A stretch of 64,000 nucleotides of DNA from Gammaproteobacteria bacterium (GTDB lineage Bacteria > Pseudomonadota > Gammaproteobacteria > Steroidobacterales > GCA-2729495), in NCBI GenBank assembly GCA_015709695.1, contig CP054183.1, forward strand, positions 2,034,992 through 2,098,991. Direction: 5' to 3'. Position numbers and translations under genes: made by a program. Position 1 is the first letter of the stretch, and every line of letters starts with the position of its first letter. Of the stretch, positions 6,688-22,171 are shown one piece after another. Under the pieces are notes generated by a model. That model saw only the letters and a program-made list of their open reading frames with translations, had not been told where the DNA came from and ran no database searches.

Positions 6688-7485
6688 TCAGGCGGCCTTG
6701 CGGCGGCGGCTGAAGCGACCCGCGGCGAGGACCGCAGGAGCGAGCAGCCAGGCTGCGGCCGGGACCGGGACTGCCGCGAACGTCAGGTAGCTGGTCCCCG
6801 AGGCATTGAGCGGGATGCCGTTGGAGATGATCAGCGTACCACCCGACCCGAGGTTGTCCTGCACGACCGTCCACATGTTGAAGGCGCCGTCGCCCGCTTC
6901 GCAGCCACCGCCGCCGGCGGTGTTCATCAGCGTGCGCACGTTGCCCGTGCTGCTGTCATCGCCGCCGATGGTGCGCTGCACGCAGTTGGCGTTGCCGCCG
7001 ACGTTGTAGACCACGGAGCTGTTGAGGACGCCGTCGGCGCCGAGGTCGAGATTGAGGCAACCGTTGGCGCCGACGCCGGCGAGGAAATTGCCCTCGAGGC
7101 ACTGGTAGGTCGCGGCTGTCGTGGTCTGGGTGCCGGTGTTGATGATCAGGTCGGTGACCTTGTCACCGTTGACCGCGCTGGCCACCGCCGAACCGCTGCT
7201 GCCGATGGTCGAGGCCGCATTGAACATGCCGGTCATCGACAGCACGCCGGTCGTCGGGTTCCAGTCCCATACGGCGGTCGAGGCCGTCAGGCCCATGTTG
7301 GACAGGTTGTTGTTGGCCGGGTTGATGCAGCCCGTGGCCGACGTGTAGGTCGTGCAGCCCGACCACTTCAGGGTGCTCAGCGTGCCGCTGCTGGCGCGCT
7401 GGTTGACCGCAGTCATTTTGACGGCGATCGCCCCCGCCTGGCTCGACAGGGCCAGCAGCGCGGCTCCGAAAATGATCTTCTTCAT
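6688..7485 (-). CDS. VPLPA-CTERM-type surface protein, copy A
   Basis: A 265-residue secreted protein of unknown function. The start at 7485 is preceded by AGGAGGAATC and begins a signal peptide (MKKIIFGAALLALSSQAGA). The middle, residues ~28-205, is a Cys-containing domain rich in Thr, Asn, Gly and Ala, shared with copies B and C. The C-terminus has the layout of an exosortase-type sorting tail: PVPAAAWLL, a hydrophobic stretch, then RRRK. Such tails normally lead to exosortase processing; no exosortase gene is visible here. It lies downstream of copy B, same strand, 96 bp apart, probably co-transcribed. Nothing in the sequence identifies a catalytic site, so function is not assigned. Confidence 0.85.
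   Translation of the reverse strand: MKKIIFGAALLALSSQAGAIAVKMTAVNQRASSGTLSTLKWSGCTTYTSATGCINPANNNLSNMGLTASTAVWDWNPTTGVLSMTGMFNAASTIGSSGSAVASAVNGDKVTDLIINTGTQTTTAATYQCLEGNFLAGVGANGCLNLDLGADGVLNSSVVYNVGGNANCVQRTIGGDDSSTGNVRTLMNTAGGGGCEAGDGAFNMWTVVQDNLGSGGTLIISNGIPLNASGTSYLTFAAVPVPAAAWLLAPAVLAAGRFSRRRKAA
6866..7403 (-). repeat. Shared coding segment, copy A
   Basis: Bases 6866-7338 read identically to 7760-8232 (offset 894, no gaps seen), and 6899-7403 reads as the exact reverse complement of 10311-10815. It covers most of the mature domain of copy A. Confidence 0.88.
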
Positions 7486-7581
7486 GATTCCTCCTGATGG
7501 AGATTCATTGCCGGTTCCGGGAGTCCCCCGGGCGCACAGGAGAACCTGCACGCCCGGGGTTCAGTACCCGGAGTCCGGGAA

Positions 7582-8379
7582 TCAGGCCGCGATGCGACGG
7601 CGCACCAGGCCCAGCAGGCCGATGGCCGAGCCGAGCAGCCACACGGCGCCCGGCACCGGCACGGCAGCGACGCTGAAGGTCAGGTAGCTGGTGCCAGCAC
7701 TGGCCAGCGGAATGCCGTTGGACACGATCAGCTGCCCACCGGGGCCGGTGTACGAGACCACCGTCCACATGTTGAAGGCGCCGTCGCCCGCTTCGCAGCC
7801 ACCGCCGCCGGCGGTGTTCATCAGCGTGCGCACGTTGCCCGTGCTGCTGTCATCGCCGCCGATGGTGCGCTGCACGCAGTTGGCGTTGCCGCCGACGTTG
7901 TAGACCACGGAGCTGTTGAGGACGCCGTCGGCGCCGAGGTCGAGATTGAGGCAACCGTTGGCGCCGACGCCGGCGAGGAAATTGCCCTCGAGGCACTGGT
8001 AGGTCGCGGCTGTCGTGGTCTGGGTGCCGGTGTTGATGATCAGGTCGGTGACCTTGTCACCGTTGACCGCGCTGGCCACCGCCGAACCGCTGCTGCCGAT
8101 GGTCGAGGCCGCATTGAACATGCCGGTCATCGACAGCACGCCGGTCGTCGGGTTCCAGTCCCATACGGCGGTCGAGGCCGTCAGGCCCATGTTGGACAGG
8201 TTGTTGTTGGCCGGGTTGATGCAGCCCGTGGCGCTGGTGTAGGTCGTGCAGCCGTCCCACTTCAGCGTGCTCAGCGAGCCGGAGCTGCTGCGCTGGTTGA
8301 CAGCGGTCATCGTCAGGGAGATGGCGCCGGCCTGGCTCGAAAGAGCCAGCAGCGCTGCTCCGATAATTACCTTCTTCAT
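7582..8379 (-). CDS. VPLPA-CTERM-type surface protein, copy B
   Basis: A 265-residue paralogue of copy A, in tandem on the same strand. Signal peptide MKKVIIGAALLALSSQAGA, then the shared domain, which appears identical to copies A and C over ~157 residues, then a divergent stretch and a sorting-type tail (VPVPGAVWLLGSAIG, hydrophobic, VRRRIAA). The ATG at 8379 follows GGAGGACTC. It is the first gene of a probable two-gene unit, with a promoter near 8563-8590 and a ~175-nt 5' untranslated region. Its signal peptide and tail differ from A while the middle does not, which suggests gene conversion or a very recent duplication. Function unknown. Confidence 0.85.
   Translation of the reverse strand: MKKVIIGAALLALSSQAGAISLTMTAVNQRSSSGSLSTLKWDGCTTYTSATGCINPANNNLSNMGLTASTAVWDWNPTTGVLSMTGMFNAASTIGSSGSAVASAVNGDKVTDLIINTGTQTTTAATYQCLEGNFLAGVGANGCLNLDLGADGVLNSSVVYNVGGNANCVQRTIGGDDSSTGNVRTLMNTAGGGGCEAGDGAFNMWTVVSYTGPGGQLIVSNGIPLASAGTSYLTFSVAAVPVPGAVWLLGSAIGLLGLVRRRIAA
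7760..8232 (-). repeat. Shared coding segment, copy B
   Basis: 473 bp that read identically to 6866-7338. Copies A and B form direct repeats with an 894-bp period, so recombination could delete or amplify one gene. Confidence 0.88.
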
Positions 8380-8562
8380 GAGTCCTCCAAACGAGAGTTA
8401 GCGATTGTTGAAAGTATCTTTCGTTCGCCGTCTGGAAAGGCGGTCTGGCTTGGCTTCCCCTCGCTCGCGTCGTGTCAGGCGTCTGCGAGCGTCTGTCCCA
8501 GACCTCTTGCCCCCTGCCGTATGTCGGTTATGAGCGTATTCCTTCTCACACGGTAGGCCGAC

Positions 8563-8613
8563 TCTATACCCCGTCGCCAAATCGCGTAAAGGGTTTCTTA
8601 ACATATTGTTAAG
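8563..8613 (-). promoter_or_regulatory. Promoter of the copy B-A unit with an adjacent palindrome
   Basis: On the minus strand, TTTACG (8585-8590) and TATAGA (8563-8568) are 16 bp apart, giving a plausible sigma-70 promoter with a start near 8556. Just upstream is a perfect 7-3-7 palindrome, CTTAACA-TAT-TGTTAAG (8597-8613), a likely regulator site. The transcript leader from ~8556 to 8380 shows no recognised riboswitch. Confidence 0.55.
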
Positions 8614-8741
8614 CTGCGTCGCGAAGGCAAAACGGGTGCGGCAAAAGGTCGCGGCATGCGTACGTCGCGCGCTGCCGACAGCAGCGGCTGCCGCGGCCCC
8701 GCGACGCACATCCCCGCTGCCACAGAGCATCCGGCTGCGGC

Positions 8742-8770
8742 TTGTCCCCCGCCGCTTATTGCGCTAAGTT
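8742..8770 (+). promoter_or_regulatory. Promoter of the shared OMP type, upstream of the OmpA gene
   Basis: TTGTCC (8742-8747), 17 bp, TAAGTT (8765-8770). The same -35/-10 pair with exactly 17 bp recurs at 12355 and 15653 upstream of two TonB receptor genes. The 21 bp at 8761-8781 are identical to 15672-15692. The -10 keeps the key T, A and final T of the consensus. Confidence 0.6.
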
Positions 8771-8782
8771 TCGCCCGGTGTA

Positions 8783-8818
8783 CCGGCGGGGGCGGGACGA
8801 GGGGTCCCGGGCCACCGG
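8783..8818 (+). promoter_or_regulatory. Conserved 5'-end RNA hairpin, copy 1
   Basis: Inner stem CGGGAC (8793-8798) with GTCCCG (8804-8809); outer stem CCGGCGG (8783-8789) with CCACCGG (8812-8818), one mismatch. It starts within ~6 nt of the predicted transcript start. The outer stem differs in sequence but stays paired in the copies at 12395 and 15695, while the inner stem is nearly constant. Confidence 0.55.
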
Positions 8819-8907
8819 CGCGACGCAGTCATCCATAGAGAAGCGGCAGGCCGGGGAAAGGCAGCGGAACCCCGGACCGGCCCGTCGGCCGAGGGGGGTA
8901 CGATTCC

Positions 8908-9009
8908 ATGAGCGGATTGCACAGCGTCAGGCCCATTCCCGGCCCTGCGCCCCGGCAGCCGTTCGCCCTCCCGGATGTTTCCGTCAACCCGCAGGTGCCG
9001 GCCTACTGA
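8908..9009 (+). CDS. Putative 33-residue leader peptide upstream of the OmpA gene
   Basis: ATG at 8908 follows a GAGGGGGG purine run. The peptide begins MSGLHSVRPIPGP and ends at TGA 9009, 65 nt before the OmpA start. A second ORF at 12522 upstream of a TonB receptor begins MSGPHSHRPIAGP, and the distance from the -10 box to the ATG is nearly the same (143 and 144 nt). Similarity also exists at DNA level, so the conserved element may be RNA rather than peptide. Translation is not proven. Confidence 0.4.
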   Translation: MSGLHSVRPIPGPAPRQPFALPDVSVNPQVPAY

Positions 9010-9074
9010 CGCGACCGCAGCCTCCACGGCGGCAGGCCCAGGTTCCACCCGTTTTTCCTGAGGAGAGTCTTGCA

Positions 9075-10187
9075 ATGAAGCGTACTGCAGTGTTGGGTCT
9101 GCTCGCCCTGGCGAGCCTCGCCGCCCAGGCGGCGGAGAGTGCCCTGGAACCCCGTATCGGCGCCGCGGCCGCCTTCGGCCGCTTCGAAGGCGAAGAGAAC
9201 CCGGCGGGCACCCTCGGCAACAAGTTCATCGATGACGACGCGGTCGGCTTCAAGATCTACGGCCAGTACCCGCTCAACGACTGGTTCGCCATCGAGGGCG
9301 CCTACCACTACACCAACAACTTCAAGGACAAGCAGAAGAGCTCCTCGCTGCCGCCCGGGCAGCTCAAGCTCAGCTTCGACGGCTGGTCCGCACAGGGCCT
9401 GGTCTACATCCCGACCACCATCGAGGACTTCCAGGCCTACCTGAAGGCCGGCTACTACGACTTCAGCGACGAGCTGGTGCTGAACGGCAGCAATATCTCC
9501 AACTCCTCCGAGCGCGGCCTGGTCGCCGGCGCCGGCATGCTGCTGAAGATCGCCGAGAACCTCGGCGTGCGGCTGGACTTCGACTGGTTCGACGCCGACG
9601 TGGGCGACCTCAGCAGCGTCAACATCGGCCTGGAGTACTTCTTCGGCCAGAAGGCCGCCCCGGTCGCCGCTGTCCCGGTGGCTGCCGCGGTTGCCGCCCC
9701 GCCCCCGCCGCCTCCTCCGCCGCCGCCTCCCCCGCCCGAGCCGGAGGACAGCGACCACGACGGCGTCGCCGACAGCGCGGATCTCTGCCCCGACACCGCC
9801 CGCGGCGACCGCGTCGACGCCCAGGGCTGCTCCTGCGACATCACCCGCCAGGTGGGCTTCGCATTCAATTCCGCCGAGCTCACCGATGAAGGCAAGGCCA
9901 CGCTGGACAAGGTCGCCGAGAACCTCGCCCGCCTGAAGTTCATCGAGGGCACGGTCACCGGCTACACCGACAGCGTCGGCGACGAAGCCTACAACCAGCG
10001 GCTCTCCGAGCGCCGTGCCCAGGCTGTCGCCGCCTACCTCGAGAGCCTTGGCATCGCCGCCGGCCGGCTGTCCGCCGTCGGCATGGGCGAAGCCGACCCG
10101 GTGGCCGACAACAGCACCGAGGCGGGCCGCGCCGAGAACCGCCGCGTCGTCCTGCGCCGCACGAACTGCGGCGCATCCGCCAACTGA
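9075..10187 (+). CDS. OmpA family outer-membrane protein with calcium-binding linker
   Basis: A 370-residue protein. Signal peptide (MKRTAVLGLLALASLAAQA), an OmpA-type eight-stranded barrel (residues ~22-195), a poly-proline hinge (~208-220), a thrombospondin type 3-like acidic repeat (DSDHDGVADSADLCPDT, ~224-242), then an OmpA C-terminal peptidoglycan-binding domain (~255-365) with the conserved YNQRLSERRAQAVAAYL helix. It ties the outer membrane to the cell wall. The ATG at 9075 follows GAGGAG; a longer upstream frame is rejected because the signal peptide starts here. It lies ~300 nt downstream of the shared promoter and hairpin and just before surface protein C on the same strand. Confidence 0.93.
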   Translation: MKRTAVLGLLALASLAAQAAESALEPRIGAAAAFGRFEGEENPAGTLGNKFIDDDAVGFKIYGQYPLNDWFAIEGAYHYTNNFKDKQKSSSLPPGQLKLSFDGWSAQGLVYIPTTIEDFQAYLKAGYYDFSDELVLNGSNISNSSERGLVAGAGMLLKIAENLGVRLDFDWFDADVGDLSSVNIGLEYFFGQKAAPVAAVPVAAAVAAPPPPPPPPPPPPPEPEDSDHDGVADSADLCPDTARGDRVDAQGCSCDITRQVGFAFNSAELTDEGKATLDKVAENLARLKFIEGTVTGYTDSVGDEAYNQRLSERRAQAVAAYLESLGIAAGRLSAVGMGEADPVADNSTEAGRAENRRVVLRRTNCGASAN

Positions 10188-10219
10188 TCCCCGTTTTCAC
10201 TTTTTCCGAGGGTAGTTTC

Positions 10220-12217
10220 GTGAGAAAGACAACATTTTCACTGATCGCGCTGGCCGCGCTGGCGCTCGTCGAGACGGCGCAGGCCTATCCGGTGCGGATG
10301 ACCGCAGTCCACCAGCGCGCCAGCAGCGGCACGCTGAGCACCCTGAAGTGGTCGGGCTGCACGACCTACACGTCGGCCACGGGCTGCATCAACCCGGCCA
10401 ACAACAACCTGTCCAACATGGGCCTGACGGCCTCGACCGCCGTATGGGACTGGAACCCGACGACCGGCGTGCTGTCGATGACCGGCATGTTCAATGCGGC
10501 CTCGACCATCGGCAGCAGCGGTTCGGCGGTGGCCAGCGCGGTCAACGGTGACAAGGTCACCGACCTGATCATCAACACCGGCACCCAGACCACGACAGCC
10601 GCGACCTACCAGTGCCTCGAGGGCAATTTCCTCGCCGGCGTCGGCGCCAACGGTTGCCTCAATCTCGACCTCGGCGCCGACGGCGTCCTCAACAGCTCCG
10701 TGGTCTACAACGTCGGCGGCAACGCCAACTGCGTGCAGCGCACCATCGGCGGCGATGACAGCAGCACGGGCAACGTGCGCACGCTGATGAACACCGCCGG
10801 CGGCGGTGGCTGCGACGCGGGCGACGGCGCCTTCAACCTCTGGACCATCGAGCAGGACGGCACCGGCGACGCTTCCGGCGACCTGGTCATCTCCAACGGG
10901 TCGATCGTCAACAGCGGCGCCTCCTGGCTGATCTTCACGCGCGCGCCGGATGCGGTGGACGACGCCGCCGATGCCATCGCGACGGTGCCGAAGTCCATCA
11001 GCGTGATGGCCAACGACCTGGCCTTCACCGACCCCGTCACCGTGGCCATCGGCACCGCGCCGACCAAGGGCACGGCCACGGTGGTCGGCAGCCCGGGTGC
11101 ACCGGGCAGCATCTCGATCAGCTACACCGGCAACAGCGGCGCGACCGGCACGGATACCTTCACCTACACCGCCACCGATGCCAACGGCAGCGACACCGCC
11201 ACGGTGACCATCACGCTGCTCGACGTCGGCGCCAACCCCGACACCGGCACCACCACCCGCAACAAGGGCATCACCATCAACGTCGGTGCCAACGACACGG
11301 GCTTCACCGCCGGCAACGTGACTGTCACCCAGGTCGGCTCCTGTGACCAGGGCGGCAGCTTCACGCCCGGCGCGGTGGGCCCGGTTGCCTCGGCGAGCAT
11401 CAACTACACGCCGGCCACCACGGCACCCGGTTCTGCCTCGTACACGGAAGTCTGCACCTACCAGATCACCGACGGCGTCCTGACCGACACCGCCACGGTG
11501 ACCGTGACGGTCAACAACAACGTGCCCGTGGCCAATGCCGGCGGCATCACCATCTCCACCGCGAATGCCAACCCGTCCTCGACCAGCGGCACGGTCAACG
11601 TGGGCAGCATCGCCGGCAACAGCCTAGGTGACACCCCGGCCACGGTGACCGCCGGCGCCGGCAGCAAGGGCAACACCAGCGTCGCCGGCAACGTCATCAC
11701 CTACACGCCGTCGGCGACGTTCTTCTCCGGCACGGATACGTTCAGCTACACCATCACGGACTCCGATCCCGGTACGCCCGACAGCGCCAGCGGCACCATC
11801 ACGGTGACCATCGCCAACGTGGCGCCGTCGCTCGCCAACACCACCGTCACCGCCACCTCCGGCAGCGCCTCCGCGCCCAAGGCGCTGACCATCACCGCCG
11901 GCAACGGCGCGGTGTCGCAGCACACGCTGGCGGTGACGACCCAGGCGACCAACGGCAACTGCGCGGTGAGCGGCACCTCGGTGACCTACACCTCCAGTGC
12001 CGGCTACGTGGGTGCCGACAGCTGCGTGATCACCGTCACCGACGGCGACGGCTCTACCGGCACCGGCACGGTCAGCGTGACGGTCAACGCGGCACCGCCC
12101 AGCGGTGGTGGCGGCACGACCGCCAACTTGCTGCCCGGTGGCGGCGGTTCGCTCGATGCCTGGGCCCTCTCGCTGCTGGCGAGCGGACTCTGGCTGCGCC
12201 GGCGCCGCGCAGGCTGA
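10220..12217 (+). CDS. Surface protein, copy C: shared domain, Ig-like repeats and GlyGly-CTERM-like tail
   Basis: A 665-residue secreted protein starting at GTG 10220 after CCGAGGG. Signal peptide MRKTTFSLIALAALALVE; residues ~30-200 are the domain shared with copies A and B; residues ~240-625 are about four Ig/cadherin-like repeats of ~95 residues with the typical GTDTFTYTATD pattern. The C-terminus is a Gly run followed by SLDAWALSLLASGLW and RRRR, matching the layout of GlyGly-CTERM tails cleaved by rhombosortases. A and B instead carry PVPA-type tails. It is therefore predicted to be presented at the surface by a different route. It is 32 bp after the OmpA gene and probably co-transcribed. 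Ligand unknown. Confidence 0.82.
   Translation: MRKTTFSLIALAALALVETAQAYPVRMTAVHQRASSGTLSTLKWSGCTTYTSATGCINPANNNLSNMGLTASTAVWDWNPTTGVLSMTGMFNAASTIGSSGSAVASAVNGDKVTDLIINTGTQTTTAATYQCLEGNFLAGVGANGCLNLDLGADGVLNSSVVYNVGGNANCVQRTIGGDDSSTGNVRTLMNTAGGGGCDAGDGAFNLWTIEQDGTGDASGDLVISNGSIVNSGASWLIFTRAPDAVDDAADAIATVPKSISVMANDLAFTDPVTVAIGTAPTKGTATVVGSPGAPGSISISYTGNSGATGTDTFTYTATDANGSDTATVTITLLDVGANPDTGTTTRNKGITINVGANDTGFTAGNVTVTQVGSCDQGGSFTPGAVGPVASASINYTPATTAPGSASYTEVCTYQITDGVLTDTATVTVTVNNNVPVANAGGITISTANANPSSTSGTVNVGSIAGNSLGDTPATVTAGAGSKGNTSVAGNVITYTPSATFFSGTDTFSYTITDSDPGTPDSASGTITVTIANVAPSLANTTVTATSGSASAPKALTITAGNGAVSQHTLAVTTQATNGNCAVSGTSVTYTSSAGYVGADSCVITVTDGDGSTGTGTVSVTVNAAPPSGGGGTTANLLPGGGGSLDAWALSLLASGLWLRRRRAG
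10311..10815 (+). repeat. Shared coding segment, copy C (inverted relative to A and B)
   Basis: 505 bp that read as the exact reverse complement of 6899-7403. The first difference at the 3' end is the third base of a Glu/Asp codon, after which the genes diverge within ~20 bp. Confidence 0.88.
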
Positions 12218-12240
12218 GGCCTGGCTGAAGCGTCCCAGGG

Positions 12241-12276
12241 GCGCCCGCGGCTTTCCGGCCGCGGGCGCTTTTTTTT
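12241..12276 (+). terminator. Intrinsic terminator after surface protein C
   Basis: GCGCCCGCGG (12241-12250) pairs with CCGCGGGCGC (12259-12268) around CTTTCCGG and is followed by an eight-T run. A strong rho-independent terminator 24 bp after the stop. Confidence 0.92.
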
Positions 12277-12354
12277 GGTTCATCGTCATCACGCCCCGCG
12301 AGGCGGCCGCCTGTGGCGCGGCCGCATCGGGCCGCGCTGCATCGGCGGTGCGGC

Positions 12355-12383
12355 TTGTTCCCTGATGTCGATTGGGATAAGTT
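12355..12383 (+). promoter_or_regulatory. Promoter of the shared OMP type, upstream of TonB receptor 1
   Basis: TTGTTC (12355-12360), 17 bp, TAAGTT (12378-12383), the same arrangement as at 8742 and 15653. It lies ~250 nt before the receptor start. Confidence 0.6.
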
Positions 12384-12394
12384 CCGTCGTGCAG

Positions 12395-12433
12395 GCTGGC
12401 AGGGGGCGGGACGGAAGGTCCCGGGTTGCCGGC
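12395..12433 (+). promoter_or_regulatory. Conserved 5'-end RNA hairpin, copy 2
   Basis: Inner stem CGGGAC (12407-12412) with GTCCCG (12418-12423); outer stem GCTGGCA (12395-12401) with TGCCGGC (12427-12433), seven pairs including one G-U. The outer arms differ from copies 1 and 3 yet still pair. Confidence 0.55.
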
Positions 12434-12521
12434 GTGAATCAGACAACATATGCATAGAGCAGGCCCGGCGGCCGTCGACACAGGCCGCGGGACCGCCCGC
12501 TGACCGGGGAGCAGCCGAACC

Positions 12522-12635
12522 ATGAGCGGACCGCACAGCCACAGGCCCATCGCCGGACCTGTGCGCGCGCGAGCACCCGCGTCACGGCAAATCCCCGTTT
12601 CCATTTCAGGTTTTTCCAGGGAGACCGGGCAATGA
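12522..12635 (+). CDS. Putative 37-residue leader peptide overlapping the TonB receptor start
   Basis: ATG at 12522 follows GGGGAG. The peptide begins MSGPHSHRPIAGP and its TGA overlaps the ATG of the receptor (ATGA, 4 bp), a layout that allows translational coupling. The N-terminus matches the leader at 8908 in 9 of 13 positions. A CATAGAG box ~70 nt upstream is shared by both leaders. Whether it is translated is not known. Confidence 0.45.
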   Translation: MSGPHSHRPIAGPVRARAPASRQIPVSISGFSRETGQ

Positions 12636-15484
12636 GGATCAAGAGGAATCTGGCGGCGGGGGCCCTGCTGGGCCTGGCGGTGGCAATGACCCTGCCGGCC
12701 GGCGCGCAGGAAATCGCCGAAATCGTCGTCACGGCGCGCCGCCAGGGCGAAGAGAAACTGATGGAGACCCCGCTCGCCATCACCGCCTTCGACGCCAATG
12801 CCATCGAATCCAAGGGCATCAGCAACCTCCAGGACGTGGCCAACCTCACCCCCGGCCTGTCCTTCTTCAATCCCCTGGGCGAGAACCTGCCGACCCCGGT
12901 GATCCGCGGTGTGGTGCCGCAGGACATCTTCGGCGAAAACGCTGCGGCCATCTTCGTCGACGGCGTCTATGTCGCCGGCCGCGAGGGCCTGAACTTCAGC
13001 CAGCTCGACATCGAGCGCATCGAGGTGCTGAAGGGCCCGCAGAGCTCCACCTATGGCCGCAACGCCTTCAGCGGCGCCATCAACTATGTCACCAAGGCGC
13101 CGAGCGACGTGTTCTCCTCCAAGGTCGAGGCCGAGGGCGGCAACCGCGGCAAGCAGAAGATCATGGGCGAGATCAGCGGCCCGATCTTCAGCGAGGCGCT
13201 CACCGGCCGCGTCTCCGCCATGTACGACGAATGGGACGGCTCCTACGACAACTCGCTCGCCCCGGAGAACGACATCGGCGGCTATCGCTACCGCAGCTTC
13301 CAGGGCAAGCTGCGCTGGCGGCCGGCCGACAGCCTGGACATCACGCTCGGCCTGTACCGCTCCAACGACGAGATCGACGAGGCCGGCGTCGCCGGCCTGC
13401 TGACCAACTGCGAGGACCAGGTCGAGCAGACGCAGGAGGACGTGAACGGCGGTGCCGGCGAGCGCCTGCAGAACTGGTGCGGCCGGATTCCCAAGCTCAA
13501 GGAACTGCCGGGCATGCTCGACGCCAGCCAGTTCCCCAACGGCGTGCAGGTCCCCGGCTCGATCTCCAAGGACACCATGCCGAAGAACGCGCTGGCCACC
13601 GGCGAGGACCGCAACCTGACCCGCGGCAACCTCAACATCGCCTGGGACACCGACGCCGGCACCCTGACCAGCATCACCGGCTATTCGAACCTGCGGCAGA
13701 ACAGCATCTCGGATTTCAACCGCAGCTCCGGCGACACCGCGCCGTTCGCCTACTGCTACCCGTCGACCAACGAGAATCCGCCGGCCTGCAACCCGCCCTA
13801 CACCTGGTCGCGCGTGCCCATGGGCTTCATCGACGAGGAGTTCGGCTCCACGGTCGAGGAATGGAGCCAGGAGCTGCGGTTCACCGGGCCGCGTGACCAG
13901 CGCCTGCGCTGGCAGGTGGGCGGTTACTACTTCCACTCCACCCTGGAGAGCCGTTCGGGCAACCCGATCGCCACGCGCCCGCTTCCCGGCGACATCGGCC
14001 CGGGCGGCAACATCGCCCTGGGACCGGTGGCAGCGCCCACCTGGCTCGCCATCGGCAGCTATATCTTTGCCACGTCCTTCACGCCCGACGGCGGCATGGA
14101 CCCGCTCAACCGCACCCTGTACGAGGACAAGGAGAAGTCCTGGTCGGTGTTCGGCTCCACGGACTTCGACATCACCGACAAGCTGGAAGCCCGCTTCGAA
14201 CTGCGCTACAACAAGGACCACAAGAAGAGCCTGGCCTTCAGCTACACGCCCTGCGCCACCGACGGCGACGGCGACGGCGACTACGGCGATGGCCTGGGCG
14301 ACAACGTCGCCCTGCCGATCGGCACGCCAGACCCGGGCTGCGGCGACGACGCCTGGGACCTGCGCGTGCGCGAAGCCACCGGCTACTACTACTACGACGG
14401 CAACGACAACCTGCAATTCCGCAAAGGCATCCAGGACGGCAGCGCCCGCTTCGACAACACCACCGGGCGCCTCGGCCTGAAGTACCAGATGGACAGCGGC
14501 TGGATGGCCTACGGCTCCATCGCCTATGGCGAGAAACCGGGTGGACTCAGCATCAGCCCCAATATCGACGTCGTCGACGGCTCGGGCACCCGGCCGATCA
14601 CGCTGACCAACAAGTTCGATCCGGAGAAGATCACGGCCTACGAGGTCGGCCTGAAGGGCTACACCCCCGACCGCCGCATCCGCGTCGACATCGCCGCCTT
14701 CTTCAACGACTGGCGCAACATCGTGCTGCGGCAGCTGACCGAGGTCGACCCGGCCACCGGCCTGCATTTCACCCAGCCTCGCGGCCTGAACGTCAACGCC
14801 GGCGACGCCCATGTGTTCGGCTGGGAGCTGACCGCCGACGTCGGCATCACCGACAGCCTGACCGGCAGGCTGACCACGGCCTATACCGACTCCAAGCTCC
14901 TCGATGCCCGGCAGGACACCTACGCGCTGTTCCCGAGCTTCTACACCACGGACCCGAGCTGCGCTCCCTCGGCCATCCAGTCCCTGCCGACGGCCGAGCA
15001 GGACGCCAGGGCCGGCGAGTGTCGCGCCATGTCGGGCGACGTCAGCGGCCATACCAACATGCGCCAGCCGGAGTGGACGGCCAGCGTATCGCTGGATTAC
15101 GTGCACCAGCTGTTCGGCGACTGGGACCTGAAGTCCAGCATCTCGGGCAACTACGTCGGCAAGATCTTCACCGCCAACGACAACCAGAACTGGGTGCCGG
15201 CGCACACCAACGTCAACTTCAACATCGGCCTGGAATCGCCGCGCTACACGCTGCAGTTCTGGGTGCGCAACCTGTTCGAGAATGACGAGCCGCTGTCCGC
15301 GTTCCGCGACATCTACTGGACCAACGACTCCGACATGCTGGCGAAGACCCCGGTCACGGGCACGACCATCCGCGACGCGTCCACGTTCGAGGACTTCCCG
15401 CCGCTGCGCATGTCGATCAGCTACCCCAGCCTGCGCACCTTCGGCCTCACCGCCCGGGTGCGCTTCGGCGGCGCCGAGAAGTAG
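12632..15484 (+). CDS. TonB-dependent receptor 1
   Basis: A 950-residue outer-membrane receptor that imports a large substrate using TonB energy. Signal peptide (residues 1-25, ending GAQ), a TonB box-like stretch EIVVTARR near residue 32, a plug domain (~45-165; VFVDGVYV-type FVDGVYVAGRE and IEVLKGPQSSTYGRNA), then a 22-strand-type barrel ending with ARVRFGGAEK. The family resembles the many receptors for plant or organic compounds in Sphingomonas-like and related bacteria; no substrate can be read from sequence. It has a tandem paralogue of the same length immediately downstream. The ATG overlaps a leader ORF and follows CAGGGAGACC. Confidence 0.93.
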   Translation: MRIKRNLAAGALLGLAVAMTLPAGAQEIAEIVVTARRQGEEKLMETPLAITAFDANAIESKGISNLQDVANLTPGLSFFNPLGENLPTPVIRGVVPQDIFGENAAAIFVDGVYVAGREGLNFSQLDIERIEVLKGPQSSTYGRNAFSGAINYVTKAPSDVFSSKVEAEGGNRGKQKIMGEISGPIFSEALTGRVSAMYDEWDGSYDNSLAPENDIGGYRYRSFQGKLRWRPADSLDITLGLYRSNDEIDEAGVAGLLTNCEDQVEQTQEDVNGGAGERLQNWCGRIPKLKELPGMLDASQFPNGVQVPGSISKDTMPKNALATGEDRNLTRGNLNIAWDTDAGTLTSITGYSNLRQNSISDFNRSSGDTAPFAYCYPSTNENPPACNPPYTWSRVPMGFIDEEFGSTVEEWSQELRFTGPRDQRLRWQVGGYYFHSTLESRSGNPIATRPLPGDIGPGGNIALGPVAAPTWLAIGSYIFATSFTPDGGMDPLNRTLYEDKEKSWSVFGSTDFDITDKLEARFELRYNKDHKKSLAFSYTPCATDGDGDGDYGDGLGDNVALPIGTPDPGCGDDAWDLRVREATGYYYYDGNDNLQFRKGIQDGSARFDNTTGRLGLKYQMDSGWMAYGSIAYGEKPGGLSISPNIDVVDGSGTRPITLTNKFDPEKITAYEVGLKGYTPDRRIRVDIAAFFNDWRNIVLRQLTEVDPATGLHFTQPRGLNVNAGDAHVFGWELTADVGITDSLTGRLTTAYTDSKLLDARQDTYALFPSFYTTDPSCAPSAIQSLPTAEQDARAGECRAMSGDVSGHTNMRQPEWTASVSLDYVHQLFGDWDLKSSISGNYVGKIFTANDNQNWVPAHTNVNFNIGLESPRYTLQFWVRNLFENDEPLSAFRDIYWTNDSDMLAKTPVTGTTIRDASTFEDFPPLRMSISYPSLRTFGLTARVRFGGAEK

Positions 15485-15495
15485 ACCCGCCTCGT

Positions 15496-15530
15496 GCCGG
15501 CACGGGCGGACCACGCCCGCCCGTGCCGGC
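15496..15530 (+). terminator. GC-rich hairpin after TonB receptor 1
   Basis: GCCGGCACGGGCGG (15496-15509) pairs perfectly with CCGCCCGTGCCGGC (15517-15530), 7-nt loop, 11 bp after the stop. No T run follows, so termination may be weak; it may instead protect the mRNA 3' end. Confidence 0.55.
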
Positions 15531-15652
15531 CTCCCTCACCGGACTTCCCCGCCCTTACGCACGCGGCCGCAGCAACGTTGCGGGCAACCGACAACGCGGC
15601 TGCCGTGCCCGGGCAACGCCGCGACTCGCTGCCACAGCACCGGCTCCCGCGC

Positions 15653-15681
15653 TTGTCGCCCGTCCGCTAATGCGCTAAGTT
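15653..15681 (+). promoter_or_regulatory. Promoter of the shared OMP type, upstream of TonB receptor 2
   Basis: TTGTCG (15653-15658), 17 bp, TAAGTT (15676-15681). The block GCGCTAAGTTTCGCCCGGTG at 15672-15691 is identical to 8761-8780. Confidence 0.6.
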
Positions 15682-15694
15682 TCGCCCGGTGTGC

Positions 15695-15731
15695 CCGCGG
15701 GGGAACGGGACGAGCGATCCCGAGCCCGCGG
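15695..15731 (+). promoter_or_regulatory. Conserved 5'-end RNA hairpin, copy 3
   Basis: Inner stem CGGGA (15706-15710) with TCCCG (15718-15722); outer stem CCGCGGG (15695-15701) with CCCGCGG (15725-15731), seven pairs. The downstream half of the leader seen in copies 1 and 2, including the MSG ORF, is absent; nothing else was recognised between here and the receptor start. Confidence 0.55.
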
Positions 15732-15885
15732 ACTTCAGCCACCACGTGATCAACGTCGCCCGCGGCGCTGGCGCAGACGGTGACGGCACCAACAGGATGA
15801 GCACGATTGCGGCAGGGGTCGCCGTCGTGCCGGGGCTTTTGGTTTCTTTCGGATGACTGTCCGACTTCCCGGGGGGATAGGGGTA

Positions 15886-18738
15886 ATGAGGATCCACAAG
15901 ATGCGCGCGGCCGGCACGCTGCTCGGCCTGTCGATCGCCATGGCGCTGCAGCCGGTCGTGGCCCAGGAAATCGCCGAGATCGTGGTCACGGCGCGCCGCC
16001 AGGGCGAAGAAAAACTGATGGACACCCCGCTGGCCATCACCGCCTTCGACTCCAATGCCATCGAATCCAAGGGCATCAGCAACCTCCAGGACGTGGCCAA
16101 CCTCACCCCCGGCCTGTCGTTCTTCAATCCCCTCGGCGAGACCCTGCCGACCCCGGTGATCCGCGGCGTCGTGCCGCAGGACATCTTCGGCGAGAACGCC
16201 GCGGCCATCTTCGTCGACGGCGTCTATGTCGCCGGCCGCGAGGGCCTGAACTTCAGCCAGCTCGACATCGCGCGCATCGAGGTGCTGAAGGGCCCGCAGA
16301 GCTCCACCTACGGCCGCAACGCCTTCAGCGGCGCCATCAACTATGTCACCAAGGCGCCGAGCGATGTCTTCGAGGCCAAGGCCGAGGCCACCGGCGGCAA
16401 CCGCGGCAAGCAGAAGATCATGGGCGAGGTCAGCGGCCCCATCTGGGGTGATGCCCTGACCGGCCGCTTCTCTGCGCTGTACGACGAGTGGGATGGCTCC
16501 TACGACAACACCCTGGCCCCGGACAACCACATCGGCGGTTACCGCTATCGCAGCTTCCAGGGCAAGCTGCGCTGGCAGCCGGCCGACAACCTGGACATCA
16601 CGCTCGGCCTCTACCGCTCCAACGACGAGATCGACGAGCCCGCCATCGGCGCCGTCCTCGCCAACTGCGAGGACGAGGTGGAGCAGACCTCGACGAATGC
16701 CAGCGAAGGTCCCGGCCAGCGCCTGCTGAACTATTGCGGGCGGATCCCCAAGCTCGACCAGCTGCCGAAGCCCCTCGACCCGGCGCAGTTCCCGCTGGGC
16801 GTGCCGCAGCCCCACATGCTCACCCGCGACTCCATGCCCAAGGACGCCCTGGGCACCGGCCAGGACCGCAACCTGACCCGCGGCAACCTCAACATCAACT
16901 GGGACACCGACTACGGCAGCCTGACCGCGCTCACCGGCTACTCCTTCATGAAGGAGAGCGCGATGTATGACTTCAACCGCATCACGGGGCATGCCACGCC
17001 GCTGGTCTACTGCTTCCCGGCCACGACCACCGAGCCGCCGACCTGCGACTCGCCGCTCTCCTGGTCGCGCATCCCGGTCGGCGTGCTGGACCCCGAGCCG
17101 GGTCCCCGCGTCGAGGAATGGAGCCAGGAGCTGCGCTTTACCAGCCCGCGTGACCAGCGCCTGCGCTGGCAGGTGGGTGGCTACTACTTCCACTCCACGC
17201 TGGAGGACCGCCAGGGCAACCCCGCCCTCTCGCCCTCGACGCCGCTGCCGCCCGGGTTCAACTACGGCCCCGGCGGCAACGTCGGCATCGGCCCGGTCGC
17301 GCTGCCGACCAACCTGTCGATCGGCACCTACATCTTCGGTGCCTCGCTGCTGCCGGACGGCGGCCTGGACCCGCTCAACCGGCCCTTCGTCGAGAACAAC
17401 GAGAAGTCCTGGTCGGTGTTCGGCTCGGCCGACTTCGACGTCACCGAGCAGCTGCAGGCCCGCGTGGAACTGCGCTACACCCAGGACCACAAGTACGCCT
17501 ACGGCTTCAATCACACCCGCTGCGTGTCGCCGACCCCTGGCAGCGCCTATCCGCTGGCCACGGACCTGCCGGCGGAGTGCGGTGACGAGCTGTTCGACCT
17601 GCGCGTCGTGGAGCCGGTCGGCTACGACACCTGGGTCAAGGACATCAACGGCGTCTACCAGCTGGTGCACATCCCCGGCGTGGAGAGCGGCAGCGCCCGC
17701 TTCGACAACGTCACCGGCCGGGTCGGCCTGAACTACAAGATGGACAGCGGCTGGATGGTCTACGGCTCCGTCGCCTACGGCGAGAAGCCCGGCGGCATCA
17801 ACGTGCTGGCCGCCAAGGAAGTCATCGACCCCAGCGGCGGTGTACGCCCCAGCACTATCTTCAACGACTTCGATCCGGAGAAGATCACCGCCTACGAGCT
17901 GGGCATCAAGGGCTACACCCCCGACCGGCGCATCCGCATGGACATGGCGGTGTTCTTCAACGACTGGCGCGACATCGTGCTGCGCCAGCTCACCATGACC
18001 GACCCGGTCAGCGGCCTGCAGTTCCGCCAGCCGCAGGGGCTGAACGTCAACTCCGGCGATGCCCATGTGTTCGGCTGGGAACTGACCACCGACGTCGGCC
18101 TGACCGAATCGCTCACCAGCCGCCTCACCGTCGGCTACACCAACTCGCAGGTGAAGAACGGACGGCTGGATACCCTGGCGCTGTTTCCGAGCTTCTACAC
18201 CACCGAGCCGAGCTGCGCCCCCGCGGCGATCCAGGCGCTGCCTGCCAACCAGCAGGACGCGAAGGCGGCGGCCTGCCGGCAGATCTCCGGCGATGTCTCG
18301 GGCAACACGCAGATGCGCCAGCCGGAGTGGACCGCCAGCCTGTCGCTGGATTACCGGCACCAGCTGGTCGGCGACTGGGACGTGAAGTCCAGCATCACCG
18401 GCAACTACACCGGCAAGATGTTCACCGGCAACGAGAACCAGGGCTGGGTGCCGTCGTACAGCAACGTGAACTTCAACATCGGCGTGGAATCACCGCGCTA
18501 TACGCTGCAGTTCTGGGTGCGCAACCTGTTCGACAACGACAAGCCGCTGTCGGCGTTCCGCGACATCTTCTGGTCCAACGACTCCGACATGTACGCCACC
18601 GTGCCGCCGGGTACCGGCACCATCCGCAACGTCTCCAACTTCGACGACTTCCCGCCGATGCGCATGACCATCAGCTACCCGAGCCTGCGCACCTTCGGCA
18701 TCGACGCCAAGATCCGCTTCGGCGGCGCCGAGAAGTAG
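15886..18738 (+). CDS. TonB-dependent receptor 2
   Basis: A 950-residue tandem paralogue of receptor 1, with nearly the same plug domain and a diverged barrel. Signal peptide MRIHKMRAAGTLLGLSIAMA ending near VVAQ, EIVVTARR TonB box-like stretch, plug with FVDGVYVAGRE and IEVLKGPQSSTYGRNA, and the same final IRFGGAEK. The ATG at 15886 is preferred over one at 15853 because it follows GGGGGATAGGGG and starts the signal peptide. The strongest differences lie in extracellular-loop stretches (protein residues ~215-330 and ~440-620), which suggests a different or broader ligand. Own promoter and hairpin upstream. Confidence 0.93.
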   Translation: MRIHKMRAAGTLLGLSIAMALQPVVAQEIAEIVVTARRQGEEKLMDTPLAITAFDSNAIESKGISNLQDVANLTPGLSFFNPLGETLPTPVIRGVVPQDIFGENAAAIFVDGVYVAGREGLNFSQLDIARIEVLKGPQSSTYGRNAFSGAINYVTKAPSDVFEAKAEATGGNRGKQKIMGEVSGPIWGDALTGRFSALYDEWDGSYDNTLAPDNHIGGYRYRSFQGKLRWQPADNLDITLGLYRSNDEIDEPAIGAVLANCEDEVEQTSTNASEGPGQRLLNYCGRIPKLDQLPKPLDPAQFPLGVPQPHMLTRDSMPKDALGTGQDRNLTRGNLNINWDTDYGSLTALTGYSFMKESAMYDFNRITGHATPLVYCFPATTTEPPTCDSPLSWSRIPVGVLDPEPGPRVEEWSQELRFTSPRDQRLRWQVGGYYFHSTLEDRQGNPALSPSTPLPPGFNYGPGGNVGIGPVALPTNLSIGTYIFGASLLPDGGLDPLNRPFVENNEKSWSVFGSADFDVTEQLQARVELRYTQDHKYAYGFNHTRCVSPTPGSAYPLATDLPAECGDELFDLRVVEPVGYDTWVKDINGVYQLVHIPGVESGSARFDNVTGRVGLNYKMDSGWMVYGSVAYGEKPGGINVLAAKEVIDPSGGVRPSTIFNDFDPEKITAYELGIKGYTPDRRIRMDMAVFFNDWRDIVLRQLTMTDPVSGLQFRQPQGLNVNSGDAHVFGWELTTDVGLTESLTSRLTVGYTNSQVKNGRLDTLALFPSFYTTEPSCAPAAIQALPANQQDAKAAACRQISGDVSGNTQMRQPEWTASLSLDYRHQLVGDWDVKSSITGNYTGKMFTGNENQGWVPSYSNVNFNIGVESPRYTLQFWVRNLFDNDKPLSAFRDIFWSNDSDMYATVPPGTGTIRNVSNFDDFPPMRMTISYPSLRTFGIDAKIRFGGAEK

Positions 18739-18823: not shown

Positions 18824-19297
18824 CTAGCGGTTGCCGAGCCTGGTGTGCTCGTGGCTGTGCGACGGCCCCGCACCGTGGGTATGGCGCTCGCTGGTCACCT
18901 GCACCGGCAGGGTCACCAGGCGGCCATGGAACACGCCGCGCTCGGCGGCCACCTGCTGGCCGAAGGCCTGCACCGCGGCCGTCGGTCCCCGCAGCACCGC
19001 GATCTCCATGCAGCTCTCGTGGTCCAGGTGCACGTGCAGGGAGGCCAGCGCCAGGTCATGGTGCTCGTGGAAGCGGGCGGTGAGCCGGCTGGCGAGTTCC
19101 CGTGAGTGGTGGTCGAAGGCGTAGACCAGCGCCGCCACGCATTCGCGCTGGCCGTCGCCATCGGCCTTCAGCTGCTGCAGGCCACTGCGCACCAGGTCGC
19201 GCAGCGCTTCGGAACGGCCGGCATAGCCGCGCCCGCTGGCAAACTGGTCGAGCTCGGCGAGCAACTCGTCATCGAGGGAAATGGTCACGCGCTGCAT
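18824..19297 (-). CDS. nikR: Nickel-responsive regulator NikR
   Basis: A 157-residue ribbon-helix-helix repressor that binds DNA when loaded with nickel. Residues 1-45 form the RHH domain (MQRVTISLDDELLAELD). The C-terminal ACT-like domain keeps the square-planar nickel ligands: His77, His88, His90 and Cys96, one position off the E. coli numbering 76/87/89/95. Unusually for the family, the protein ends in a His-rich tail (residues ~138-151, ERHTHGAGPSHSHEHT), which may add metal binding. It is divergent from hupE, and a perfect NikR operator lies between them, so autoregulation is likely. Confidence 0.96.
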   Translation of the reverse strand: MQRVTISLDDELLAELDQFASGRGYAGRSEALRDLVRSGLQQLKADGDGQRECVAALVYAFDHHSRELASRLTARFHEHHDLALASLHVHLDHESCMEIAVLRGPTAAVQAFGQQVAAERGVFHGRLVTLPVQVTSERHTHGAGPSHSHEHTRLGNR

Positions 19298-20060: not shown

Positions 20061-20092
20061 GACGGGAGCGGCTTGCCCGGAGAATGCCCCTG

Positions 20093-22171
20093 GTGAACAC
20101 CCGCGCACGCGGCTTCCTGCCCGCGCTCGCCCTCGCCCTGGCTCTCGCCAGCCCCGCCACGGTACTGGCTGGTGGCGTGCCCACCGCACCCGGCAATGAA
20201 GTCGTCGTCATCGGCCGGCTCGATGTGCTGGAAGGCGCACCCCTGGCGGCCACCGAGGGCGTGGTCACGCAGGAACAGCTGGACGCGCGGCCGCTGGGCC
20301 GGACCGGCGAGATCCTCGAGGTGGTGCCCGGGCTGATCGTCACGCAGCACAGCGGCGACGGCAAGGCGAACCAGTATTTCCTCCGCGGCTTCAACCTCGA
20401 CCACGGCACCGACCTCGCCACCAGCGTGGATGACGTGCCGGTGAACATGCCGACCCACGGCCACGGCCAGGGCTATACGGACATCAACTTCGTCATCCCG
20501 GAGCTGGTGCAGGAAGTCGAGTACCGCAAGGGCACCTACTACGCCGATGCCGGCAACTTCGCGGCGGCCGGCACCGTCAACCTCGCCTGGCGCGACCGGC
20601 TCGACCAGCCCTTCGCCACGCTCGAAGGTGGCGAGTACGGTTACCGTCGCGCCCTGCTGGCCGGCAGCCTGGGGCTGGCCGGCGGCGACCTGCTGCTGGC
20701 CGCCGACTACACCGGCAACGACGGGCCCTGGGATCTCGACGAGAACCTGTCGCGCCTGAATGCGCTCGGCCGCTACAGCCGGGCCACGGACAGCGGCCGC
20801 CTCAGCCTCACGCTGCAGGCCTACGACGCGGACTGGGATGCCACCGACCAGATCCCCCGGCGCGCCGTGGACGCCGGCCTGATCGACCGCTTCGGCGCCA
20901 TCGACCGCAGCGACGGGGGCGCGAGCCACCGCTACAGCCTCGCCGCCCATGCGGACGGCGCGCTCGGTGCCGGGCACTACCGCGCCCTGGCCTATGCGGT
21001 CGATTACCGCATGGCGCTGTACTCCAACTTCACCTATGCCACCGATCCGGTCGACGGCGATCAGTTCGAGCAACTCGACGACCGCAGCATCTACGGCGGC
21101 AGCGCCAGCTGGAGCCTGCCGCTGCCTTCGCTCGGGCAATCGGGCGCCCTGCAACTCGGCACAGACCTGCGCTACGACGACATCGGCACCGTCGGCCTCT
21201 ACAACACCGTGGCGCGCCGGCGCACCGGCACCGTGCGCGAGGATGCCGTGAAGCACGGAAGCATCGCCGCCTTCGCCAGCCTCGACACGCGCTGGCTCGA
21301 CTGGCTGCGGACCAACCTCGGGCTGCGGGCCGATTACTTCCACTTCGACGTCGACAGCAACATCGCCGCCAACTCCGGCACCGAATCGGCCAGCGAGCTG
21401 AGCCCGAAGCTCTCCGTGGTGTTCGGGCCCTGGCGGCAGACCGAGTTCTTCGCCAACGCGGGCAAGGGCTTTCACAGCAACGATGCGCGCGGCACCACCA
21501 TCCGCGTGGACCCGACCGATCCGTCGGTGCCGGTCAGCAAGGTCGATCCGCTGGTCGACGCCTTCGGCAGCGAGGTCGGGCTGCGCACGGCACTGCTGCC
21601 GCGCACCCAGCTGAGCCTGGGGCTGTGGCAGCTGCGGCTGGATTCGGAGCTGCTGTTCGTCGGCGACGCCGGCATCACCGAGCCCAACCGCAAGAGCGAG
21701 CGCCGCGGCCTGGAGTTCTCCGTGATCCACTCGCCGCTCGACTGGCTGGTGCTCGACCTCGACCTCGCCTGGACCCACGCGCGCTTCGACGAGCCCGACC
21801 CGAACGACCCGGCCGCCGGCGACCGCATCCCCGGTGCGGTGGACAGCGTGGCGGCACTCGGCATCGCCATCGATCATCCCTCCGGCTGGACCGGCGGCCT
21901 GCGTATCCGCCACTTCGGCCCGGCACCGCTGGTCGAGGACAACTCCGTACGCTCGGAGGCCACCACGGTGGTCAACCTCGAGGCCGGCTACCGCCTCACG
22001 CCCCGTGTGAAGCTGACCGCCACGCTGCTCAACCTTTTCGATGCCGAGGACAACGACATTACCTACTACTACGAGTCGCAGCTGCCGGGCGAGCCGGCAC
22101 CGGTGGCGGACATCCATTTCCACCCGGTGGAGCCGCGCACGCTGCGGCTGGCGCTGACGGCGGGGTTCTGA
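20093..22171 (+). CDS. TonB-dependent receptor, probable nickel uptake
   Basis: A 692-residue outer-membrane receptor. Signal peptide ending near VLAGG; TonB box-like EVVVIGRL; plug with LRGFNLDHGTDLATSVDDVPVN; barrel ending LRLALTAGF. The His-rich plug stretch MPTHGHGQGYTDIN is compatible with metal binding. GTG at 20093 is preferred to ATG 20084 because the GGAGA at 20079-20083 is ideally spaced for it and too close for the ATG. Location behind a NikR-controlled permease suggests import of chelated nickel across the outer membrane, completing the pathway with HupE. Substrate is inferred from context only. Confidence 0.88.
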   Translation: MNTRARGFLPALALALALASPATVLAGGVPTAPGNEVVVIGRLDVLEGAPLAATEGVVTQEQLDARPLGRTGEILEVVPGLIVTQHSGDGKANQYFLRGFNLDHGTDLATSVDDVPVNMPTHGHGQGYTDINFVIPELVQEVEYRKGTYYADAGNFAAAGTVNLAWRDRLDQPFATLEGGEYGYRRALLAGSLGLAGGDLLLAADYTGNDGPWDLDENLSRLNALGRYSRATDSGRLSLTLQAYDADWDATDQIPRRAVDAGLIDRFGAIDRSDGGASHRYSLAAHADGALGAGHYRALAYAVDYRMALYSNFTYATDPVDGDQFEQLDDRSIYGGSASWSLPLPSLGQSGALQLGTDLRYDDIGTVGLYNTVARRRTGTVREDAVKHGSIAAFASLDTRWLDWLRTNLGLRADYFHFDVDSNIAANSGTESASELSPKLSVVFGPWRQTEFFANAGKGFHSNDARGTTIRVDPTDPSVPVSKVDPLVDAFGSEVGLRTALLPRTQLSLGLWQLRLDSELLFVGDAGITEPNRKSERRGLEFSVIHSPLDWLVLDLDLAWTHARFDEPDPNDPAAGDRIPGAVDSVAALGIAIDHPSGWTGGLRIRHFGPAPLVEDNSVRSEATTVVNLEAGYRLTPRVKLTATLLNLFDAEDNDITYYYESQLPGEPAPVADIHFHPVEPRTLRLALTAGF

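What the first reader, a model, noticed from the sequence alone, without database searches (positions are those of the whole stretch)
8742..15731. Shared promoter plus covarying 5' hairpin upstream of three outer-membrane protein genes
Three sites (8742, 12355, 15653) have TTGTYS, exactly 17 bp, TAAGTT, and then within ~6-12 nt a nested hairpin. The inner stem is nearly constant (CGGGAC/GTCCCG). The outer stem changes sequence at each site yet stays paired: CCGGCGG/CCACCGG with one mismatch, GCTGGCA/TGCCGGC with one G-U, and CCGCGGG/CCCGCGG. Such compensatory change argues for a functional RNA structure at the very 5' end of the transcript. The downstream genes are OmpA and two TonB receptors, so it may be a small outer-membrane regulon using a 5' stabiliser or regulator-binding element. 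The pairs are seen in sequence; the regulon is inference.
Basis: partly seen in the sequence, partly recalled or inferred. Interest (0 to 1): 0.85.

Follow-up and report, generated by a model that had tools for sequence, protein, structure and literature searches.

The report
Promoter-linked mRNA hairpin upstream of outer-membrane genes
A few related bacteria appear to start the messages of neighbouring outer-membrane protein genes with the same promoter followed at once by an RNA hairpin whose two sides have changed together in evolution, probably to protect or control those messages.

Summary
At 8742, 12355 and 15653 a promoter-like TTGTYS-N17-TAAGTT is followed by a nested hairpin, upstream of an OmpA gene and two TonB-dependent receptor (TBDT) genes. 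The exact promoter pattern occurs nowhere else in this 3.1 Mb genome. Six more copies lie in three of nine other genomes of the genus: two before TBDT genes, three before OmpA genes, one at a contig end. None was found in the other sampled genomes of the order (396 by pattern, 196 by model). With nine copies the outer arms co-vary: swapping arms between copies weakens pairing (P = 0.0003), and 35 control segment pairs show no such effect. One relative rebuilds its outer stem with a partner further downstream; another has a different outer stem. Loop length varies (4, 5, 7), which favours RNA over a DNA operator. The stem lies 12-13 nt after TAAGTT in eight copies. Best explanation: a 5'-terminal stem-loop leader, most likely a stabiliser like that of E. 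coli ompA, perhaps also a binding site. Function, transcript starts and half-lives are untested. The 'regulon' is one type of gene cluster. No Rfam family matches. The three window sites alone could not have shown covariation.

The parts
8742..8770 (+). site 1 promoter: TTGTCC (8742-8747), 17 bp, TAAGTT (8765-8770)
   Evidence: CTTGT and TAAGTT present in 9 of 9 copies
8777..8818 (+). site 1 leader start (+1 predicted near 8777) and nested hairpin: outer CCGGCGG 8783-8789 / CCACCGG 8812-8818 (one C.A), inner CGGGAC 8793-8798 / GTCCCG 8804-8809
   Evidence: +1 is inferred from the -10 position
8908..9009 (+). short leader ORF (33 aa, MSGLHSVRPIPGP...) with GAGGG upstream; second conserved box
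   Evidence: translation not shown
9075..10187 (+). OmpA-type gene (OMP_b-brl + OmpA domain)
10220..12217 (+). Ig-repeat protein gene between ompA and TBDT 1, same cluster, no element of its own
12355..12383 (+). site 2 promoter: TTGTTC, 17 bp, TAAGTT (12378-12383)
12390..12432 (+). site 2 leader start (predicted) and hairpin: outer CTGGCAG 12396-12402 / TTGCCGG 12426-12432, inner CGGGAC 12407-12412 / GTCCCG 12418-12423
12522..12635 (+). short leader ORF (37 aa, MSGPHSHRPIAGP...) whose TGA overlaps the ATG of the TBDT gene
   Evidence: translation not shown
12632..15484 (+). TonB-dependent receptor gene 1
15653..15681 (+). site 3 promoter: TTGTCG, 17 bp, TAAGTT (15676-15681)
15688..15731 (+). 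site 3 leader start (predicted) and hairpin: outer CCGCGGG 15695-15701 / CCCGCGG 15725-15731, inner CGGGAC 15706-15711 / ATCCCG 15717-15722 (last pair C.A)
15886..18738 (+). TonB-dependent receptor gene 2 (ORF opens at 15853; start at 15886 more likely from homology to TBDT 1)

Best explanation
Each site is one cis-regulatory module of about 80 bp: a sigma-70-like promoter (TTGTYS-N17-TAAGTT) whose transcript is predicted to begin about 7 nt after the -10 box and to fold at once into a nested stem-loop: an outer helix of about 7 bp or more, an internal loop with a G-run on its 5' side, and an inner CGGGA/TCCCG stem with a 4-7 nt loop. Shown: the sequence anatomy, its absence from the other genomes searched outside this genus, and the coupled change of the two outer arms. 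Inferred: the start site, that the RNA forms in the cell, and what it does. Most likely it is a 5'-terminal stem-loop that shields the 5' end of outer-membrane mRNAs from 5'-end-dependent decay (RppH/RNase E), as the 5' stem-loop of E. coli ompA does; the constancy of the inner stem and G-run suggests that a protein may also read it.
For: Nine copies with promoter and hairpin: 3 here, 2 in G002, 3 in G004, 1 diverged in G006. Arm-swap test, free of any alignment: sum of own-arm pairing energies -185.2 against -160.0 +/- 7.1 for random partners, P = 0.0003 (all 9); P = 0.007 for 6 after dropping G2o, G4o2 and G6o; z -2.8 to -3.5 for four 3' arm lengths, while 35 control segment pairs from 8 of the leaders (G6o too short) give z -1.85 to +1.97. 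On the structure-fitted alignment of all 9, 6 of 14 pairs have a change on both sides (0 of 500 shuffles as high; cells with such a change 1 of 500); slid structures give 0-3. Inner closing pair is C-G, U-G or U-A, once C.A, in the 7 copies laid out by hand, G2o and G6o left out. G006's copy has a different, longer outer stem (TGCCAT and CCGG pairing with CCGG and ATGGCA), and G002's ompA copy re-forms its outer helix, GGUA/UACC at the base, with a partner further downstream. TAAGTT-to-stem distance is 12-13 nt in 8 of 9 copies; loops of 4, 5 and 7 nt fit RNA better than two DNA half-sites. E. coli ompA mRNA is said to be stabilised by elements in its 5' UTR (passage of PMC2777011; related passages of PMC7509114).
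Against: No transcript start or half-life data. Pairing of the predicted first 6 nt is uneven (mean 0.29 at site 1 to 0.98 in G2t, and at site 1 below the shuffle mean of 0.53), so the 5' end is not always tucked in. Folding energy of the leader starts is not unusual for every copy (z from +0.6 to -3.5). Site 1 and both G004 ompA copies keep a C.A mismatch, G2t an A.G. A pure stabiliser would not need the constant inner stem and G-run. The 9-copy alignment was fitted to the structure, and the unfitted 6-sequence alignment showed no excess. The arm-swap test does not fully correct for relatedness.
Confidence: 0.5

Rival explanations
1. The hairpin is chiefly a docking site: an RNA-binding protein or small RNA recognises the constant inner stem and the G-run, and the outer helix only presents them. 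The OmpA and TBDT messages would then be co-regulated after transcription.
For: Inner stem CGGGA/TCCCG and the G-run are constant in the 8 closer copies while the outer helix varies; identity between orthologous leaders of G000 and G002 has a local peak there: 1.00 (ompA) and 0.85 (TBDT) in the 20-nt bin that holds it.
Against: No candidate binder: among 16 distinct ORFs of the neighbourhood scanned with Pfam there is a NikR-like regulator but no obvious RNA-binding regulator. G006's copy has a changed, shorter inner stem.
Confidence: 0.25
2. It is a DNA element: an inverted-repeat operator just downstream of the start site, bound by a dimeric regulator; pairing of the two arms merely reflects dyad symmetry.
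For: Symmetric changes (C..G to T..A) are also what a palindrome would show; sequence is strongly conserved.
Against: Loop of 4, 5 or 7 nt and 5' internal loop of 3-5 nt break fixed half-site spacing; G-U pairs occur (site 2, G4b, G4o2); outer arms change sequence while pairing is kept; G2o uses a different 3' arm.
Confidence: 0.12
3. The hairpin is a passenger: a promoter region spread by duplication in the cluster, with hairpins that GC-rich DNA makes easily.
For: The copies lie in one type of cluster; sites 1 and 3 share sequence beyond the element, such as GCTGCCACAG upstream; 98 loosely similar nested hairpins in 64 kb.
Against: The module sits before non-homologous genes (OmpA and TBDT), and the arms co-vary while control segments of the same leaders do not.
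Confidence: 0.13

Closest known systems
E. coli ompA 5'-terminal stem-loop (mRNA stabiliser; Emory 1992 and Arnold 1998 not read, known from reference lists and from recall)
   Same: Hairpin near the 5' end of an outer-membrane protein mRNA; upstream of an OmpA gene here too.
   Different: Same module also on non-homologous TBDT genes, tied to one promoter type, with a constant inner stem and G-run; stability not measured here.
Riboswitches upstream of TBDT genes (cobalamin, TPP)
   Same: Structured leader before TonB-dependent receptor genes (TPP and cobalamin examples in passages of PMC2659441).
   Different: No Rfam match to the leaders at gathering score, and only three weak unrelated matches at E <= 5 in 8400-16200.
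CruR-type upstream ORF before the TBDT gene bfrG of Bordetella pertussis (PMC9426467, abstract and outline seen)
   Same: A short ORF in the leader of a TBDT gene; here its stop overlaps the receptor start in two leaders.
   Different: No CXXC or RAPP motif in the peptides (site 2 has RAPA); no evidence of translation; ORF in this place in 5 of 8 full leaders, with an unrelated peptide in one.
Yersinia pseudotuberculosis ompA RNA thermometer (PMC8245352, start of abstract in the listing)
   Same: Structured ompA leader.
   Different: That structure is proposed to repress translation; this hairpin ends more than 100 nt before the start codon (leaders of 159-310 nt), so it does not directly cover the ribosome site.

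Membership tests
5'-terminal stem-loop mRNA stabiliser (ompA type) | stem-loop within a few nt of the mRNA 5' end | tested here: inconclusive
   12-13 nt from TAAGTT to stem in 8 of 9 copies; start site only predicted; mean pairing of +1..+6 ranges 0.29-0.98
5'-terminal stem-loop mRNA stabiliser (ompA type) | stem kept by base pairing while sequence changes | tested here: met
   arm-swap P = 0.0003, controls flat
5'-terminal stem-loop mRNA stabiliser (ompA type) | stem-loop lengthens mRNA half-life | not testable with these tools
   needs RNA measurements
Known Rfam family (riboswitch, leader, sRNA) | covariance-model match | tested here: not met
   only a tRNA at gathering threshold in the window; three weak unrelated matches at E <= 5 in 8400-16200
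Dispersed regulon | same element before unlinked genes | tested here: not met
   3 copies within 7 kb and no other found in the complete genome
DNA operator with dyad symmetry | constant spacing of half-sites | tested here: not met
   loop 4, 5, 7 nt; 5' internal loop 3-5 nt
Intrinsic terminator/attenuator | U-run after the stem | tested here: not met
   no T-run in the 26 nt after the inner stem in 9 of 9 copies

The most novel reading that the evidence does not exclude
A new, genus-restricted RNA family: a promoter-locked 5' hairpin with a G-run and constant inner stem read by an unknown protein, copied onto unrelated outer-membrane genes so that OmpA and TonB receptors are set to one mRNA lifetime, possibly acting together with a short leader ORF (MSGxHSxRPIAGP-like) coupled to the receptor start.
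Probability: 0.2. Interest if true: 0.65.

Novelty: new variant of a known kind. Interest (0 to 1): 0.45.

Why it matters
If the hairpin sets mRNA lifetime, a lineage has packaged promoter and stabiliser as one copyable unit and put it on unrelated outer-membrane genes, a natural case of post-transcriptional co-regulation by copied 5' ends. Nine natural variants with matched arm changes give ready-made material for break-and-restore tests.

Tried and rejected
Rfam families: none fits. DNA operator: not first choice, for spacing reasons. Terminator: no U-run.

Wider distribution: model R1 gave 11 matches in 6 of 40 family genomes at E <= 0.05. Two of these (G032, G060, E about 0.03) and the fourth own match (E 0.24) were read and dropped as chance: none has TTGT-N18-20-TAAGTT. 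Pattern scan of the GTDB contigs: 15 stretches, 5 of them (6 matches) from drafts whose contig lengths equal those of G002, G004 and G006, and 10 from other taxa; viral contigs: 12 stretches. Of these 22 others, 3 had any R2 match at E <= 1, best 23.8 bits, against 50.9-91.7 for the nine copies (these built the model), so they were taken as chance. The order-wide pattern search found 4 of 396 genomes, all of this genus; R2 found the same 4 of 196.

Homologues without the module: 18 stretches upstream of OmpA or TBDT matches were read; none holds TAAGTT. Of the 18, one (G3_C146_O) lies inside its gene, several matches begin some residues after the start, and the G007 and G009 rows are the same sequences. 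One (G3_C5_O) has a CTTGT...TTGG...TAGTGTT stretch that may be a decayed relative; left open. R1 over 22 loci found only known copies and two matches of 11.5-12.5 bits. By eye, several OmpA paralogues have TTGA..../TATACT-like promoters instead.

NikR gene nearby (18824-19297): a link to the three sites was not tested. Second box as a hairpin: by eye it pairs in site 2 and G2t, poorly in G4b; left open. Its pattern alone is not special: 17 matches in 40 family genomes against 31 of the reversed control. The search for a taxon name failed. An index slip left the G2o row empty; redone.

Full report
OBSERVATION. The three sites are as described. TTGTCC, TTGTTC and TTGTCG stand 17 bp before TAAGTT, and a nested hairpin follows; the outer arm begins 12-13 nt after TAAGTT. 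In the complete 3.1 Mb genome the pattern TTGT-N18-20-TAAGTT occurs three times, all here, against two hits of the reversed control. A longer box allowing two mismatches gives these three without mismatch and three others at two mismatches, against four for the control. Covariance model R1, built in part from them, finds the three at E 2.3e-16 or better and one chance match at 0.24; model R2 over the window without filters finds the three at 74.6-87.4 bits and nothing else above 13.6. Downstream lie an OmpA gene and two TonB-dependent receptor genes.

RELATIVES. Searches of the genus and family give six further copies: G002 (before an OmpA gene and before TBDT 1), G004 (before two OmpA genes and one TBDT) and G006 (one diverged copy 105 nt from a contig end; its divergent neighbour is a homologue, 49% identical, of the protein divergent from ompA at site 1, so the missing gene is probably OmpA). 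That is 4 of 10 genomes of the genus counting the own one, and 0 of the other 30 family genomes once two weak matches are dropped. In the order it is 4 of 396 sampled genomes by pattern and 4 of 196 by model R2. In the named GTDB collection the pattern meets drafts titled Gammaproteobacteria bacterium isolates SJ574, PRO3 and BROCD033, whose contig lengths equal those of G004, G002 and G006, and 10 stretches of other taxa, with R2 scores of at most 23.8 bits. Eighteen stretches upstream of other OmpA and TBDT matches, not all of them true 5' ends, lack TAAGTT.

COVARIATION. The three window sites alone prove nothing: own arms give the best of six arrangements, and six sequences in an unfitted alignment show no excess. 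With nine copies, the pairing energy of each 5' arm with its own 3' arm sums to -185.2 kcal/mol against -160.0 +/- 7.1 for random partners (P = 0.0003; without G6o 0.0008; without G2o 0.001; six after dropping G2o, G4o2 and G6o 0.007). The result holds for four 3' arm lengths (z -2.8 to -3.5), while 35 control pairs of segments from eight of the leaders give z -1.85 to +1.97. The test does not correct fully for relatedness, but the controls carry the same relatedness. On the structure-fitted alignment, 6 of 14 pairs change on both sides and 0 of 500 shuffles reach this; that alignment leans towards the structure. Two copies are telling: in G2o the usual 3' arm is altered, yet the 5' arm pairs with CCCGCCCGGATACC further down; in G6o the outer stem has another sequence and is longer.

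AGAINST A DNA OPERATOR. The loop is 4, 5 or 7 nt and the 5' internal loop 3-5 nt, which a dimeric DNA-binding protein would not normally tolerate. G-U pairs occur. The near-constant distance to TAAGTT ties the hairpin to the predicted start of the RNA.

WHAT IT DOES. Inference: a stem-loop at the extreme 5' end of outer-membrane mRNAs most simply acts as a stabiliser. Reviews state that E. coli ompA mRNA is stabilised by elements in its 5' UTR (passage of PMC2777011), that stem-loops are among features that protect mRNAs (passage of PMC7509114) and that Bacillus RppH needs at least two unpaired 5' nucleotides (passage of PMC3997798). The limit of a few unpaired nucleotides for ompA-type protection is recalled, not read. 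Uneven pairing of the first six nucleotides (0.29 to 0.98) is a weakness. The constant inner stem and G-run suggest a second, sequence-specific role.

SECOND FEATURE. Five of eight full leaders have a short ORF starting 132-193 nt after the predicted start, with a ribosome-site-like sequence found in four; the peptide begins M-S/N-x-x-H-S/G in four, and in site 2 and G4b its stop overlaps the receptor ATG. In G2t one extra base puts the ORF in another frame. A pattern for the underlying box hits only these leaders in G000 (2 of 2), G002 (2 of 2) and G004 (1 of 1), but over 40 genomes it has 17 matches against 31 of the reversed control, so the pattern alone is not special. In the G000-G002 comparison this stretch is a second conservation peak in the TBDT pair (0.95, 0.85) and a less distinct one in the ompA pair (0.90, 0.80). 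It may be coding or structural.

NOVELTY. Rfam has no match. Paper searches for TBDT or OmpA leaders (listings seen, passages as named) showed no such module; most subscription papers are not held. It is a new variant of a known kind: a 5'-terminal stem-loop leader, here fused to a promoter and copied within a gene cluster.

Noticed in passing
window 8908-9009 and 12522-12635: Short leader ORFs with shared start MSGxHSxRP; the second overlaps the TBDT start codon (ATGA). Related ORFs in the G002 ompA and G004 TBDT leaders; another frame in the G002 TBDT leader.
   Followed up: partly
window 6688-8379 (minus strand): Two tandem genes divergent from ompA, related to each other and to the start of the Ig protein; the G002 homologue ends in a VPVPGAVWLFGSAVGLLGLVRRR tail, which looks like a PEP-CTERM-type sorting signal (recalled motif). 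No Pfam match.
   Followed up: partly
window 8511-8613: Stretch between the divergent gene and site 1 that is 1.00 identical to G002 over 8511-8550, with an AT-rich TTCTTAACATATTNTTAAG at 8595-8613 also seen in the G004 TBDT locus; perhaps the promoter region of the divergent gene.
   Followed up: no
window 18824-19297 and 20084-22171: NikR-like regulator gene near a third TonB-dependent receptor gene, which lacks the hairpin module: possible nickel uptake locus.
   Followed up: no
L036, L037 upstream of the TBDT match: Repeated copies of GTAGGAGCGGCGCAAGCCGCGAC-like units precede the TBDT gene in two relatives with the same sequence here.
   Followed up: no
L069 upstream of the OmpA match at 1492: CTTGT-N20-TAGTGT-like stretch in the same place as the module in G003; possibly a decayed copy.
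   Followed up: partly
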